From Brucella pituitosa (GTDB lineage Bacteria; Pseudomonadota; Alphaproteobacteria; Rhizobiales; Rhizobiaceae), in NCBI RefSeq assembly GCF_003049685.1, contig NZ_PYSY02000001.1:496001-560000 (forward strand): a stretch of 64,000 bases of DNA. The letters run 5' to 3'. The stretch's first letter is position 1. Every line of letters starts with the position of its first letter. The notes under the pieces are model-generated. The model was not told where the DNA came from. It made no database searches and saw only the letters and a program-made list of their open reading frames with translations. Positions 35,217 through 58,523 of this stretch are shown here, in pieces. A program made the position numbers and the translations under genes.

Positions 35217-35252
35217 AATAAAAAACCGGCCTTGCGAAAACGCAAAAGGCCG
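35217..35252 (-). terminator. Terminator of the SAM-II riboswitch (expression platform)
   Basis: On the minus strand CCGGCCTTTTGCG, TTTT, CGCAAGGCCGG followed by TTTTTTATT. It lies between the aptamer and metZ, so ligand binding can abort transcription. Confidence 0.85.
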
Positions 35253-35264
35253 GTAACGAACCGC

Positions 35265-35325
35265 GGCCTCATTTAGCGAATTCTTTAACGTGGCTGCAAG
35301 CCGGCCGGCCAAATCACCACGGAAC
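35265..35325 (-). ncRNA. SAM-II riboswitch upstream of metZ
   Basis: On the minus strand the RNA reads CCGTGGTGATTTGGCCGG, then GCTTGCAGCCACGTTAAAG, then TTCGCTAAATGAGG. This matches the SAM-II consensus: stem P1 from GTGG pairing with CCAC, the conserved UGAUUU strand, GUUAAAG and the 3' GCUAAA that closes the pseudoknot. Transcription would begin at its 5' edge from the promoter at 35332-35360. Confidence 0.93.
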
Positions 35326-35331
35326 ACTTTT

Positions 35332-53697: not shown

Positions 53698-53949
53698 ATG
53701 TTAGGGAATCTTATCCTGTTAAGTCAGATAGGTAGATTTAATTAAAATTGGAAGATTACAAGTTTCTAAGCCTCTCCCAACTGATATGAGGCCTGTTTTA
53801 ATGATCACTTTTTCGCGCAAGATAACGAACTGCGTTACCTATCTGCTCTTTTAAGGTGGCGGGTTTGGCATTGCAGCCATGCAGTTTATGCACTTCTCAA
53901 AACGATTGAAAAGGCGGAAACTTCATATTGGGAGGAAGGTAAAAAAGCA

Positions 53950-53976
53950 CAGCACATCCTGAAAAGAGGTGTGCTG
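53950..53976 (+). other. Hairpin upstream of the DUF1127 gene
   Basis: CAGCACA (53950-53956) and TGTGCTG (53970-53976) around a 13-nt loop, ending 20 bp before the ATG, so it would sit in the 5' leader. The rest of the 298-bp gap 53698-53995 is AT-rich and holds no gene I can support. Confidence 0.45.
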
Positions 53977-53995
53977 CACATAAGGGGATACCATC

Positions 53996-54145
53996 ATGAA
54001 CAACCTTCGTACCCAGTTTTCCCGTTGGATGCAGTATCGCGAAAATCTGCGCGAACTCAGTGGCTGCAGCGACCGCGAGCTTTATGATCTCGGTCTGTCA
54101 CGTACCGATATTCACCGCGTTGCACGCGAGGCAGCCTTCGCCTGA
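53996..54145 (+). CDS. DUF1127-family small protein, 49 residues
   Basis: A short gene starting at ATG 53996 with AAGGGG upstream and ending at TGA 54143. The sequence is typical of DUF1127: an Arg-rich start (MNNLRTQFSRWMQYRENL) and the conserved SDRELYDLGLSRTDIHRVAR. In other alphaproteobacteria such proteins act as small RNA-binding or stress-related regulators (CcaF1 in Rhodobacter). Confidence 0.88.
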   Translation: MNNLRTQFSRWMQYRENLRELSGCSDRELYDLGLSRTDIHRVAREAAFA

Positions 54146-54464: not shown

Positions 54465-55355
54465 TCAAGCCTCGTGATGGGTGTTTTCATGCTTGCATAG
54501 CGTGAGCCAGGCCCGTGCGGCATGGGATAAAAACGCACCCTTTCGCCATATCAGGGCCATGTCCCAGTTCAGTTCCGCGCCTTTGATCTTATGGATGCGG
54601 ACATCGGGGTGCTTGCGCTGTTCAGCAATCATTTGTGGCAGAAAGCCAATACCCATACCAGCGGCTACCAGTTCCACGATAAAATCGATCTGGCTGGAAC
54701 GCATGGCAATGTTCGGGGACAATCCGTGCTGATGGCATGCATCGAGAATGATATGATTGAGGGCGAAGCCGCTTTCAAACAGAATGAAGGGCAGACTGGC
54801 AATGTCTTGCAAAGGGATGCCGCCATTATCGGCGAAGGTGTGGCTGGCAGGAAGCAGTGCCACCACCGGCTCCCGACGCACCGCCTGCCATTCAAAATTG
54901 CTTTCGAGCGACAGAAGCGAAGCGGCAAGTTCGATATCGCCTGCAAGAAGCAATTCCTCCAGCCGCCTGCTACCATGCTCGACGAGCTGAATGTCGATAT
55001 CCGGGTAAAGTTTGGTAAAGGTCGCAAAGACCGGGGCGAACAATACACTCGAACCGATGGGTGGCAATCCGAGGCGCAAAAGACCGCGCTTCAGCCCGCG
55101 CAACTCGCCAAGCTCAGTCAGCATGTCGTCCTTTTCCGTCAGCATAGCCAGTGCGCGCCGATAGACGATTTCACCTGCGCTTGTCAGACGGGGAGGGGTG
55201 GTTTCGCGGTCCAGCAGAATGATTTCGAGTTCGTCTTCGAGCTGCCGCACCGTCTTGCTGACGGTCGATTGTGTAGCATTGATGGTACGGGCCGCGGCGG
55301 AAAAGCCGCCCTGCCGCACCACTTCCACGAATGCCTGAAAGCCACGTAAGTTCAT
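54465..55355 (-). CDS. LysR-family regulator (CidR-like)
   Basis: A 296-residue LysR regulator. The N-terminal winged HTH is residues about 1-60 (FSAAARTINATQSTVSKTVR, then QLEDELEIILLDR), followed by a periplasmic-binding-protein-like effector domain. It diverges from the CidA/LrgB genes with 97 bp between, the same arrangement as CidR and cidAB in other bacteria, so it probably activates them. Confidence 0.87.
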   Translation of the reverse strand: MNLRGFQAFVEVVRQGGFSAAARTINATQSTVSKTVRQLEDELEIILLDRETTPPRLTSAGEIVYRRALAMLTEKDDMLTELGELRGLKRGLLRLGLPPIGSSVLFAPVFATFTKLYPDIDIQLVEHGSRRLEELLLAGDIELAASLLSLESNFEWQAVRREPVVALLPASHTFADNGGIPLQDIASLPFILFESGFALNHIILDACHQHGLSPNIAMRSSQIDFIVELVAAGMGIGFLPQMIAEQRKHPDVRIHKIKGAELNWDMALIWRKGAFLSHAARAWLTLCKHENTHHEA

Positions 55356-55452: not shown

Positions 55453-55866
55453 ATGACCATGAATGCCCATAACCTGATGATCCGTTTTCGCTATGCGCTG
55501 CACAACAGCCGCTTGATGCAGATTGCGACGCTGGTCGGTTTCTGGTTGGCCGGTGAGGCGTTTGTTCGTTTAAGCGGTCTGCCACTGCCTGGCGGCATTG
55601 TTGGTATGGCGCTGGTTTTGGCGTTGCTTCTGAGTGGACGTGTAAGCCTATTCAGCATGAAGCGCGGTGCTGAATGGTTTCTTGCTGAAATGCTGCTGTT
55701 CTTTGTGCCTGCAGTTCTGGCAGTTCTGGAACATCAGGAACTGCTCGGTATGCTGGGTGTGAAGATTATGGCGGTCATTCTGGTTGGAACTCTGACCGTT
55801 ATGACTGTGACGGCACTGACTGTAGACTTCTGCTATCGTCTGAGCGCTCGCTATGCCACTAAGTAA
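55453..55866 (+). CDS. CidA/LrgA-family holin-like protein
   Basis: A 137-residue inner-membrane protein with four hydrophobic segments. The family stretch is GLPLPGGIVGMALVLALLLS and the end of the third helix FFVPAVLAVLEH. It overlaps the next gene by 14 bp, indicating coupling. Relatives affect murein hydrolase activity, cell death or export of small metabolites such as pyruvate. Confidence 0.88.
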   Translation: MTMNAHNLMIRFRYALHNSRLMQIATLVGFWLAGEAFVRLSGLPLPGGIVGMALVLALLLSGRVSLFSMKRGAEWFLAEMLLFFVPAVLAVLEHQELLGMLGVKIMAVILVGTLTVMTVTALTVDFCYRLSARYATK

Positions 55867-56548
55867 CCCCTATGTGGCGACACTATTCTGGTCGGCGGCT
55901 ACGATCCTTCTCTATCTTGCTGCAAAGCGCGTTTATCGCCGTTTTCCCATGTGGTGGCTGACGCCGCTTGCGATCACTCCACTGCTGCTGATGGCCTTGC
56001 TTATCGGCCTTAATGAAAACTACCGCGGCTATTTCAGTGCGACGCATTGGCTGGTCGCGCTCCTTGGCCCGGCAACGGTGGCCTTTGCCATTCCCATCTA
56101 TCAGCAACGCGCAACTATTCGTCGTTACTGGCCGGTTCTGCTGGTTGGTGTCGTGGTTGGCAGCTCTTCTGCGATGCTTTCGGCCTGGGGGCTTGCGCAT
56201 CTTCTTGGATTGAATGACGCTATAAGCCTCAGCCTGATGCCGCGCTCCATGAGTACACCTTTCGCCATGACGGTTTCCGGCGATATTGGCGGGACGCCTG
56301 ATTTGACAGCCATCTTCGTGGTGCTGACCGGTGTATTCGGTGCAGCGCTGGGTGAGGTGATGCTCAACTGGTTGCCGCTTCGCTCGGCTCTCGCGCGCGG
56401 CGCACTGTTCGGTATGGGCGCGCATGGGGCTGGTGTTGCCAAGGCCCATCAGATCGGCAGCGAGGAAGGCTCGATTGCAGGTCTCGTCATGGTTCTGGTC
56501 GGTTTGGTCAATGTTTTGGCTGCGCCGTTCATCGCCCAGCTTCTCTGA
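55853..56548 (+). CDS. LrgB/CidB-family membrane protein
   Basis: A 231-residue membrane protein with about seven segments. Diagnostic residues are PATVAFAIPIYQQR, LMPRSMSTPFAMTVS, GGTPDLTAIFVVLTG and GMGAHGAGVAKAHQIG. Partner of the CidA-like protein in the same operon. Confidence 0.9.
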   Translation: MPLSNPYVATLFWSAATILLYLAAKRVYRRFPMWWLTPLAITPLLLMALLIGLNENYRGYFSATHWLVALLGPATVAFAIPIYQQRATIRRYWPVLLVGVVVGSSSAMLSAWGLAHLLGLNDAISLSLMPRSMSTPFAMTVSGDIGGTPDLTAIFVVLTGVFGAALGEVMLNWLPLRSALARGALFGMGAHGAGVAKAHQIGSEEGSIAGLVMVLVGLVNVLAAPFIAQLL

Positions 56549-56602: not shown

Positions 56603-56675
56603 TGTGCGTTTGTGTTTCTGCAACAATCTTAAGCATCGGCGTATTTGCATAACTGATATGCGTTATTGACCGTTG

Positions 56676-56705
56676 TTGAATAAAGAGGCTGCGGGTAATT
56701 ATTAG
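56676..56705 (+). promoter_or_regulatory. Candidate promoter of the CCUCCUCCC small RNA
   Basis: TTGAAT at 56676-56681 and TATTAG at 56700-56705 with an 18-nt spacer, placing transcription start at about 56711, the first base of hairpin 1. A second choice is TTGACC at 56666. Confidence 0.45.
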
Positions 56706-56710
56706 TCATC

Positions 56711-56816
56711 GGGTTCACTCCTCCTCCCAGAACCCGATGCGGGATACGGCACTCCTCCTCCCAGCCGTATTCAAGATCAGGCCGCGCATCCTCCTCCCGC
56801 GCGGCCTTTTTCTTTT
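56711..56816 (+). ncRNA. Small RNA with three CCUCCUCCC-loop hairpins (cuckoo/alpha-r14-like)
   Basis: Three consecutive hairpins each show the same loop. Hairpin 1: GGGTTC (56711-56716), loop ACTCCTCCTCCCA, GAACCC (56730-56735). Hairpin 2: ATACGGC (56744-56750), the identical loop, GCCGTAT (56764-56770). Hairpin 3: GGCCGCGC (56780-56787), loop ATCCTCCTCCC, GCGCGGCC (56799-56806), then TTTTTCTTTT as terminator. The loops are perfect anti-Shine-Dalgarno sequences, the mark of the alphaproteobacterial cuckoo RNAs (CcsR, alpha-r14/NfeR1), which bind ribosome sites of many mRNAs. No reading frame overlaps it. The remaining parts of the 424-bp gap hold nothing else supported. Confidence 0.87.
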
Positions 56817-56972
56817 CTGAACCTCCCCAAATGCTGAACTGTTAACAGTGCGTCGCCGCACAGCCCCATGGGCATTCGAGCCAATGTGAACTATCTCTCG
56901 GGTAACTTCACATTTGCGGTGATTGTCTCCGTCTGAGAGACTTGCCGCCACGAAACGCGGGAGATTGCAATC

Positions 56973-58523
56973 ATGACCAGTGGGATCCATCACCTCACGC
57001 TGATTACGCGCAAGGTTCAGGCCAATGTCGACTTCTATGCTGGCTTTCTCGGTCTGCGTATAGTCAAGCGGACAGGTGGATTTGAAGATGCGGAACAGCT
57101 GCACCTGTTCTATGGCGACCGTTCTGGAACGCCGGGGTCTTTGATCACTTTCCTCGTCTGGGAAGATGGTGCAAGGGGCCGTGTCGGTCATGGTCAGGTT
57201 AGCGAAATTGCCCTTGCGATCGACCGCACCTCGGTCGGCTTTTGGCTGGAGCGGGCATTGCGCTATCACGTGCAGTCTGAAGGTCCGGTACAGGAATTTG
57301 GCGAGCCGGTGCTTCGCTTGCGCGATCCGGATGGCGTTATCGTCAAGCTGGTCGGCAGCGATCTTGCAGCCAATGACGCATGGGTTTCAGGCGATATTCC
57401 TGCGGAACATGTTGTGCGCCGGATACGCTCGGCAACCATTTTGTCTGAGGCACCAGAACAGACAGTTGGCTTCATCGAACGCTATTTCGGTTTCCGCGCT
57501 CAGGCCAGGGAAGGCACGATTGATCGTCTGGTCTCTGATTCAGGCGATGTGATTGACGTTCGCGATGCAAGTGGCTTCTGGCCGGGTATTCCCGGAACAG
57601 GCATTGCTGACCACGTGGCGTTTCGTGCGGCTATAACGGATGATGTGACAAAGCTTGAGAAGGAGCTTTCAAAGCTTAACTCCAGTGAAGTCAACGTACA
57701 TGACCGTAAATACTTCACGTCGCTCTATGTCCGTGAGCCGGGCGGAACCCTGTTTGAATTTGCCACCGATGCTCCCGGCTTTACCCTGGATGAACCAGTG
57801 GAATCGCTGGGTCGGGTTCTGTTCGTGCCACCGGGCAACGAGCAGCAGGCGGATGCGATCCGATCCCGTATGCCGCAATTTGGCTTGCCGGGTGAGGAAA
57901 GGGTGATCTATCGCGATTTGCCTTTTGTGCATCGTATCCATCAGCCGGAAAACCCGGATGGCAGTACGCTTGTTCTGCTGCATGGCACCGGCGGCAATGA
58001 AAACGACCTCATGCCGCTTGCTCGTCTGGCTGCACCGCGCGCAACGCTTCTGGGTGTTCGGGGACGCAGCACGGAAGAAGGCATTCAGCGCTGGTTTCGC
58101 CGTTTCGATCTGAAACGGTTCGACCAGGAGGACATTCGGTCTGAGGCCGAGGCTTTCGAGGCTTTTGTCGAAGGTGCGATTGTTGCCTACGGTATTGATC
58201 CGGAACGGACTGCGTTCATTGGAAACTCCAACGGCGCCAATCTGCTTGCGGCCTTTATGCGGCTCCATCCACATGTCGTACGCAAAGCCGTGTTGTTGCG
58301 TGCAACGGACGTTCTGGAAGAGCAACCGGTTGCGGACCTTTCGGATGCTAAGATTCTGTTGCTCAACGGGATTGGCGATCCGTTTGGCGATGCATCCGGC
58401 AAACTGGAGCAAGCCTTGCGGGCTGATGGTGCAGAACTTGATGTTCTCTCCACCGAAGGTGGTCATGGACTGACAGATGAAGATGTTCGTCTGGCTGGTG
58501 AATGGCTGCAGCGCAAGCTCTGA
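56973..58523 (+). CDS. Fused VOC ring-cleaving dioxygenase and alpha/beta hydrolase
   Basis: A 516-residue fusion. Residues about 1-310 are a two-module VOC extradiol dioxygenase (MhqO-like): a metal His in SGIHHLTLI, a second His in IADHVAFRA and Glu in TLFEFATDAPGF. Residues about 320-516 are a carboxylesterase/phospholipase-type hydrolase (MhqD-like) with LLHGTGGNENDLMPLA, the nucleophile in FIGNSNGANL, Asp in NGIGDPFG and His in EGGHGLT. In Bacillus the two activities are separate genes in the hydroquinone-response regulon. The fused form may open a quinol ring and hydrolyse the product. Confidence 0.85.
   Translation: MTSGIHHLTLITRKVQANVDFYAGFLGLRIVKRTGGFEDAEQLHLFYGDRSGTPGSLITFLVWEDGARGRVGHGQVSEIALAIDRTSVGFWLERALRYHVQSEGPVQEFGEPVLRLRDPDGVIVKLVGSDLAANDAWVSGDIPAEHVVRRIRSATILSEAPEQTVGFIERYFGFRAQAREGTIDRLVSDSGDVIDVRDASGFWPGIPGTGIADHVAFRAAITDDVTKLEKELSKLNSSEVNVHDRKYFTSLYVREPGGTLFEFATDAPGFTLDEPVESLGRVLFVPPGNEQQADAIRSRMPQFGLPGEERVIYRDLPFVHRIHQPENPDGSTLVLLHGTGGNENDLMPLARLAAPRATLLGVRGRSTEEGIQRWFRRFDLKRFDQEDIRSEAEAFEAFVEGAIVAYGIDPERTAFIGNSNGANLLAAFMRLHPHVVRKAVLLRATDVLEEQPVADLSDAKILLLNGIGDPFGDASGKLEQALRADGAELDVLSTEGGHGLTDEDVRLAGEWLQRKL

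What the first reader, a model, noticed from the sequence alone, without database searches (positions are those of the whole stretch)
56711..56816. Small RNA with three identical anti-Shine-Dalgarno hairpin loops
Three strong hairpins in 106 nt each expose CTCCTCCC, and the third doubles as the terminator. The loops of the first two are identical over 13 nt while their stems are unrelated in sequence, so loop and pairing have been kept and the stem bases have not. The cuckoo/alpha-r14/CcsR RNAs are known to carry such loops, usually on two hairpins by my recollection; a triple version would be a stronger ribosome-site decoy or a three-target regulator.
Basis: partly seen in the sequence, partly recalled or inferred. 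Interest (0 to 1): 0.8.

Follow-up and report, generated by a model that had tools for sequence, protein, structure and literature searches.

The report
Known-family bacterial small RNA (αr14)
This is one more copy of a known alphaproteobacterial small RNA, αr14/NfeR1, whose three C-rich loops are thought to block the ribosome-binding sites of nutrient-transporter messages; three loops are normal for the family.

Summary
Window 56706-56812 (+) folds into three strong hairpins, each exposing TCCTCCTCCC, the last followed by a T-run. It is a full-length match to Rfam RF02344 (ar14): 85.2 bits, cutoff 58.8. The genome, near Brucella (Ochrobactrum) grignonensis, has seven copies. This copy is kept in all 23 closest loci fetched, with near-invariant loops. 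Most likely it represses translation by pairing with Shine-Dalgarno sequences, often of solute-binding proteins, with redundant loops. The addition here is promoter evidence. A VtlR/LsrB box (GCAT-N3-TG-N3-T) lies at 56647-56659, -61 to -49 from the inferred start, and in all 24 orthologs. Of 109 genus copies examined, the box precedes 56 of 63 free-standing RNAs and the DUF1127 gene of the other 46, suggesting one regulator drives most of the set. This is inference without expression data. Verdict: new member of a known kind, low interest.

The parts
56706..56812 (+). αr14 sRNA gene copy; Rfam match spans 56701-56812; inferred transcript about 56708-56812, ~105 nt
   Evidence: RF02344 85.2 bits against gathering 58.8; fold z -6.89; 24-ortholog alignment
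56716..56730 (+). loop 1 region CACTCCTCCTCCCAG, identical to loop 2
   Evidence: invariant in 24 of 24 orthologs apart from one inserted C in L050
56750..56764 (+). loop 2 region CACTCCTCCTCCCAG
   Evidence: one C-to-T (L057) and an inserted T or A in some of the 24 orthologs
56788..56798 (+). loop 3, ATCCTCCTCCC, of the terminator-like hairpin
   Evidence: invariant in 24 of 24
56779..56812 (+). hairpin 3 and following T-run: presumed intrinsic terminator
   Evidence: fold; sequence; no terminator scan was run
56673..56701 (+). candidate sigma-70 promoter TTGTTG-N17-TAATTA
   Evidence: read by eye; the -10-like block is better kept in the 24-ortholog alignment than the -35
56647..56659 (+). 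candidate VtlR/LsrB box GCATAACTGATAT (GCAT-N3-TG-N3-T), -61 to -49 from the inferred start
   Evidence: consensus from PMC7486931 and PMC8844928 passages
53996..54145 (+). small DUF1127 protein gene, 49 aa, a possible co-member of the same regulon
   Evidence: Pfam PF06568 51.6 bits; ORF
53870..53882 (-). VtlR-type box upstream of the DUF1127 gene; by eye the surrounding sequence matches 14 of 15 bases of the VtlR motif quoted in PMC12595884
1556..1572 (+). predicted target site GGGAGGAG...ATG of a solute-binding protein ORF (about 1570-2904)

Best explanation
This is a free-standing copy of the alpha-r14 (NfeR1-type) small RNA. It is transcribed as a ~105-nt RNA from its own promoter, probably activated by the LysR-type regulator VtlR/LsrB. 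The three CCUCCUCCC loops, unpaired in the predicted fold, pair with extended Shine-Dalgarno sequences (GGGAGGAG) of mRNAs and block ribosome loading. The favoured targets are mRNAs for solute-binding proteins and other parts of nutrient uptake. The three loops are most likely redundant, giving more binding sites per RNA rather than three separate target sets. Shown here: family membership, predicted structure, conservation, the box and its position, and complementarity to candidate targets. Inferred: transcription, VtlR control, and translational repression, by analogy with S. meliloti NfeR1 and AbcR1.
For: Rfam ar14, 85.2 bits over a cutoff of 58.8. Fold z -6.89. 7 copies in the genome, and matches in 23 of 23 other genus genomes searched. 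The sRNA lies beside the same gene, with near-invariant loops, in the 23 closest of 80 loci kept; 2 of 27 pairs show compensatory changes. VtlR/LsrB box in 24 of 24 orthologs at an almost fixed place, with the -61/-49 spacing that PMC8844928 reports for S. meliloti PabcR1 (passage); the start used for that comparison is inferred. A LysR regulator follows trxB in this genome, the published place of vtlR in Agrobacterium. GGGAGGAG-N3-9-ATG occurs 23 times in the genome against 2 for the reversed pattern. Of 15 downstream ORFs of at least 100 aa, 6 are solute-binding proteins and 8 are transport components. In 33 control ORFs with an AAGGAGAA site the figures are 3 and 4; Fisher p 0.018 and 0.0042, or 0.012 for transport if an antiporter-type control ORF is counted too.
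Against: No transcript data. The promoter lacks the CTTAGAC-N17-CTATAT signature reported for NfeR1 homologs, and the -35 is weak. The box is short: 48 of 1278 112-nt stretches of the window hold one. 7 of 63 free-standing genus copies lack the exact box. ntrB, a tested NfeR1 target in S. meliloti, has little complementarity here (-6.6 kcal/mol against -17 to -27 for the pattern sites). The target pattern was chosen for complementarity, so those energies test nothing by themselves. 8 of the 23 pattern sites have no ORF of 100 aa, and one of these (L223) is the complement of another alpha-r14 copy. The control set is small and one of many possible.
Confidence: 0.8

Rival explanations
1. General decoy: the loops mimic the 16S 3' end and soak up Shine-Dalgarno sequences or initiation factors broadly, lowering translation globally instead of selecting targets.
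For: The loops contain CCUCCU (that this is the 16S core is recalled, not from a call); 7 copies per genome would raise the dose.
Against: The published NfeR1 action is on particular mRNAs via these loops (PMC10746234). Sites with the full GGGAGGAG are few (23 in 5.5 Mb) and lean to transport genes.
Confidence: 0.1
2. Protein-binding or sponge RNA: the loops are binding sites for an RNA-binding protein such as a DUF1127 protein (as CcaF1 with CcsR RNAs in Rhodobacter), which the RNA titrates.
For: 46 of 109 genus copies lie just downstream of a DUF1127 gene; [quoted passage not shown] A DUF1127 gene lies 2.6 kb upstream here.
Against: None of the 21 genus copies of this group, this one included, has a DUF1127 gene directly upstream; the loop sequence is an exact complement of extended Shine-Dalgarno sites.
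Confidence: 0.07
3. The hairpins are only terminators or a chance antisense part of an overlapping minus-strand ORF (56715-57269, 184 aa).
For: The ORF is open in the window.
Against: In 23 of 23 orthologous loci the frame is interrupted: 14-97 codons open out of 165-228. Three hairpins, compensatory changes and an Rfam match argue for an RNA.
Confidence: 0.02

Closest known systems
αr14 family / NfeR1 of Sinorhizobium meliloti (Rfam RF02344 ar14; SmelA075 is the matching three-hairpin RNA of PMC3927594)
   Same: Three hairpins, CCUCCUCCC in each loop, stems that differ, last hairpin followed by T-run, several copies per genome, full-length covariance match.
   Different: Promoter is not the reported CTTAGAC-N17-CTATAT; the LsrB-type box sits at -61/-49 from an inferred start (as in PabcR1), not -72/-60; ntrB pairing is weak here. 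About 105 nt against 123 or 115 nt reported for NfeR1.
Cuckoo / CcsR1-4 (RS0680a) RNAs of Rhodobacter with DUF1127 protein CcaF1
   Same: Same kind of loop motif; other copies in this genus do lie behind DUF1127 genes.
   Different: RS0680a has two hairpins and the CcsR RNAs are co-transcribed with a DUF1127 gene; this copy is free-standing with three hairpins.
SmelA099 four-hairpin RNAs
   Same: Same module repeated; copies with four motifs exist in this genome (L004) and genus.
   Different: This copy has three hairpins.
AbcR1/AbcR2 (αr15)
   Same: CUCCCA anti-SD seed, ABC-transporter targets, and VtlR/LsrB control of one of the two (PMC9751625, PMC8844928 passages).
   Different: Another family; Hfq-binding; two distinct motifs rather than three identical ones.

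Membership tests
αr14 (Rfam RF02344) | covariance-model score over the curated cutoff, full length | tested here: met
   85.2 bits against 58.8, model 1-123
αr14 (Rfam RF02344) | three hairpins each with an unpaired CCUCCUCCC loop | tested here: met
   predicted fold and motif positions
αr14 (Rfam RF02344) | stems differ in sequence while loops are kept | tested here: met
   between hairpins and paralogs; 2 of 27 pairs compensatory among orthologs
αr14 (Rfam RF02344) | several copies per genome | tested here: met
   7 in the genome; 3-8 matches at E<=0.001 in each of 23 other genus genomes
αr14 (Rfam RF02344) | expressed, Hfq-independent trans-acting RNA repressing mRNAs via the loops | not testable with these tools
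   no expression or mutant data
NfeR1 ortholog proper | CTTAGAC-N17-CTATAT promoter | tested here: not met
   TTGTTG-N17-TAATTA by eye; published signature
NfeR1 ortholog proper | pairing with the ntrB start region | tested here: not met
   -6.6 kcal/mol, no GGAGG at the start of the ORF after dusB
NfeR1 ortholog proper | LsrB-type box upstream | tested here: inconclusive
   box present in 24 of 24 orthologs but about one helical turn closer to the inferred start than reported for NfeR1
CcsR/cuckoo (CIN1) type | located behind a DUF1127 gene | tested here: not met
   no DUF1127 frame within 420 nt upstream in any of the 21 copies of this group
CcsR/cuckoo (CIN1) type | RpoHI/RpoHII promoter and RNase E processing | not tested
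   -

The most novel reading that the evidence does not exclude
In Brucella/Ochrobactrum nearly every alpha-r14 copy, whether free-standing or in the 3' region of a DUF1127 gene, is wired to VtlR/LsrB through a box at a set distance. If so, VtlR would act largely by releasing a multicopy pool of interchangeable anti-Shine-Dalgarno RNAs together with DUF1127 proteins, a redundant layer that single-gene deletions would miss.
Probability: 0.45. Interest if true: 0.5.

Novelty: new member of a known kind. Interest (0 to 1): 0.22.

Why it matters
By itself it adds one copy of a known regulatory RNA. The wider pattern gives a testable account of why changing known VtlR targets has had little effect. 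Passages of PMC12595884 report that restoring three DUF1127 genes and abcR2 did not rescue the vtlR mutant, and cite work in which deleting them, singly or together, had no effect on virulence. A set of redundant αr14 copies in the same regulon would be natural missing members; the passages seen do not mention them.

Tried and rejected
Antisense ORF 56715-57269: rejected, interrupted in 23 of 23 orthologous loci. ntrB as a conserved target: not supported. DUF1127 host gene for this copy: absent. NfeR1-type promoter: not seen. The cuckoo-family paper (PMC4615179) is not held, so that family is known here only through other papers. Plasmid search: 30 records, all at 60-80% identity; the 20 listed match the flanking genes. 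Literature searches on αr14-type RNAs and VtlR/LsrB listed no paper whose listing or passages state VtlR control of αr14 copies in Brucella/Ochrobactrum; most were seen as listings only. PMC10746234 does report a conserved upstream stretch shared with Brucella NfeR1 homologs, so part of the link is in print. Eisfeld et al. (a LysR regulator and numerous sRNAs in Agrobacterium) was seen only as a reference entry.

Limits of the counts. The 109 arrays come from loci L001-L030 and L117-L216 (own genome and 23 unnamed genus genomes), collapsed by identical core. Copies with fewer than two exact CTCCTCCC motifs within 65 nt (such as L005, L006, L197) were dropped, and not every match was fetched. 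Copies are related, so they are not independent. In one search, L215 was given a wrong start codon (box at -53); the other 45 lie at -93 to -116. The 1% chance figure is from shuffles; in real sequence it is 3.8% (window) to 6.3% (L117-L216, true boxes included) per 112 nt. Target sites: 23, of which 8 were dropped for ORFs under 100 aa. Control sites: 48, of which 14 were dropped for ORFs under 100 aa and L251 as a near-copy of L277, leaving 33. In the control, one search shows 25 of 72 families without naming members; 18 of the 33 were then scanned by name, and the families of the other 15 were assigned and their first residues. One control ORF with an antiporter-type domain was not counted as transport; counting it gives p 0.012.

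Full report
What is there. The stretch 56706-56812 (+) lies between lrgAB (LrgA and LrgB Pfam matches at 55453-55863 and 55853-56545) and a glyoxalase/esterase-type fusion gene (56973-58523). It folds into three hairpins with 13-, 13- and 11-nt loops. Each loop carries TCCTCCTCCC (56719, 56753, 56789), and loop regions 1 and 2 share 15 identical bases. The energy of 56700-56830 is -48.8 kcal/mol against a shuffle mean of -27.6 (z -6.89, 0 of 200).

Family. cmscan of the window against Rfam puts RF02344 (ar14) on 56701-56812 at 85.2 bits, cutoff 58.8, over the full model. The model consensus itself has the C-rich motif in three hairpin loops. In print: PMC3927594 (passages and section 2.7) describes three-hairpin SmelA075 and four-hairpin SmelA099 as derivatives of a single family, and the two-hairpin RS0680a of Rhodobacter as a shorter version. 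PMC10746234 (abstract, introduction and two results sections) describes NfeR1 as the founding αr14 member, with three redundant anti-Shine-Dalgarno motifs that silence two transporter mRNAs and ntrB. So three loops is the ordinary state.

Organism and distribution. The neighbouring 516-aa protein is 97% identical to that of Brucella (formerly Ochrobactrum) grignonensis (records very near the window's genome may be left out there; the former genus name is recalled). The genome holds 7 ar14 matches over the cutoff. All 23 other genus genomes searched have matches over the cutoff; of the 16 genomes from other families in that one search have a match at E <= 0.001, 1 of them over the cutoff. In a wider draw, 63 of 199 genomes of the order, own included, have a match and 29 of 199 are over the cutoff (stricter filters lose weak matches).

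Conservation of this copy. One search found 145 loci encoding a relative of the neighbouring protein and kept 80. The 23 closest by identity and name (75-97%: Brucella, Ochrobactrum, Falsochrobactrum and two unnamed Rhizobiales isolates) all carry the sRNA 199-390 nt upstream; the other 57 (67% or less) have no array of two or more CCTCCTCC motifs. In the two Falsochrobactrum loci the sequence further upstream differs, so lrgB is not the neighbour there. The alignment of 24 has near-invariant loops: one C-to-T in L057 loop 2, and single-base insertions next to the motif. 2 of 27 pairs show two-sided changes, one of them (A-U to G-C) in 7 of 24 sequences.

Promoter. A TTGTTG-N17-TAATTA core (56673-56701) predicts a start near 56708 and an RNA of about 105 nt; this was read by eye. 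The best-kept upstream block is around TTTGCATAACTGATATGC. It contains GCAT-N3-TG-N3-T, the VtlR/LsrB consensus quoted in PMC7486931 and PMC8844928 (passages), at -61 to -49. PMC8844928 reports the same positions for the S. meliloti abcR1 promoter. All 24 orthologs have the box, L050 in the opposite orientation, at an almost fixed distance from the first stem. A LysR gene stands next to trxB in this genome, where the Agrobacterium paper places vtlR.

A genus-wide pattern. Among 109 distinct arrays from the own and 23 other genus genomes, 63 are free-standing and 46 lie behind a DUF1127 gene. The box is within about 100 nt upstream in 56 of the 63, and in 0 of the 46. It is upstream of the DUF1127 start codon in 46 of 46: 93-116 nt in 45, and 53 nt in one whose start was misassigned. 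The seven without an exact box mostly show a near form, by eye. The background is 3.8% per 112 nt in the window and 6.3% in the genus loci. Copies are related, so this is suggestive rather than a count of independent events. VtlR activation of DUF1127 genes is already in print for Brucella (PMC12595884 passages), as is LsrB activation of NfeR1 (PMC10746234). The window itself holds a DUF1127 gene (53996-54145; 51.6 bits) with a box at 53870 that closely matches the published VtlR motif.

Targets. GGGAGGAG-N3-9-ATG occurs 23 times in the genome, the reversed pattern twice. Of 15 downstream ORFs of at least 100 aa, 6 are solute-binding proteins and 2 are transporter membrane parts. The other 7 match DUF779, a demethylubiquinone-methyltransferase-type domain, GFO/IDH/MocA, GutM, FGGY kinase, hydroxyisobutyrate-dehydrogenase-type and aldehyde dehydrogenase families. 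One of the solute-binding proteins is in the window (site at 1556). Among 33 ORFs behind AAGGAGAA sites, 3 are solute-binding proteins and one is a permease (assignment explained under Tried and rejected). Fisher p is 0.018 and 0.0042, or 0.012 for transport with an antiporter-type ORF counted. This agrees with the published lean of NfeR1 towards ABC transporters. Against a fully conserved circuit, ntrB here lacks a matching site (-6.6 kcal/mol).

Mechanism. Most likely VtlR/LsrB turns on the RNA, and its loops pair with extended Shine-Dalgarno sequences and block translation of uptake genes. Redundant loops raise the number of seeds per RNA. Transcription, regulation and repression are inferred. 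The general-decoy and protein-sponge readings are not excluded. A minus-strand ORF over the region is not conserved.

Verdict. The find is real and correctly read as an sRNA, but it belongs to a known family and is not an unusual form of it. The shared-regulator pattern is the part that goes beyond what I saw in print, and it needs expression data.

Noticed in passing
window 53870-54145: A 49-aa DUF1127 protein gene with a VtlR-type box about 115-125 nt upstream of its start; no anti-Shine-Dalgarno hairpins follow it, by eye.
   Followed up: partly
window 35251-35330 (-): SAM_alpha riboswitch (alphaproteobacterial SAM riboswitch), 81 bits, cutoff 36.
   Followed up: no
L004, L005, L006, L007: Other αr14 copies of the same genome lie behind DUF1127 frames, L004 with four motifs; L005 and L006 have the same score and the same sequence in the stretch printed and look like two copies of one element on contig C10.
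   Followed up: partly
L165, L168, L173, L176, L179, L182, L187, L188: Two αr14 genes in divergent orientation less than 1 kb apart in several genus genomes; 15 of these 16 copies have an exact box of their own, one in L173 does not.
   Followed up: no
L036: Two arrays of three CCTCCTCC motifs with wider spacing (39-48 nt) in a member of another family of the order, scoring below the Rfam cutoff: possibly a diverged branch.
   Followed up: no
window 54465-55355 (-): LysR-type regulator divergent from lrgAB, not the trxB-linked one.
   Followed up: no
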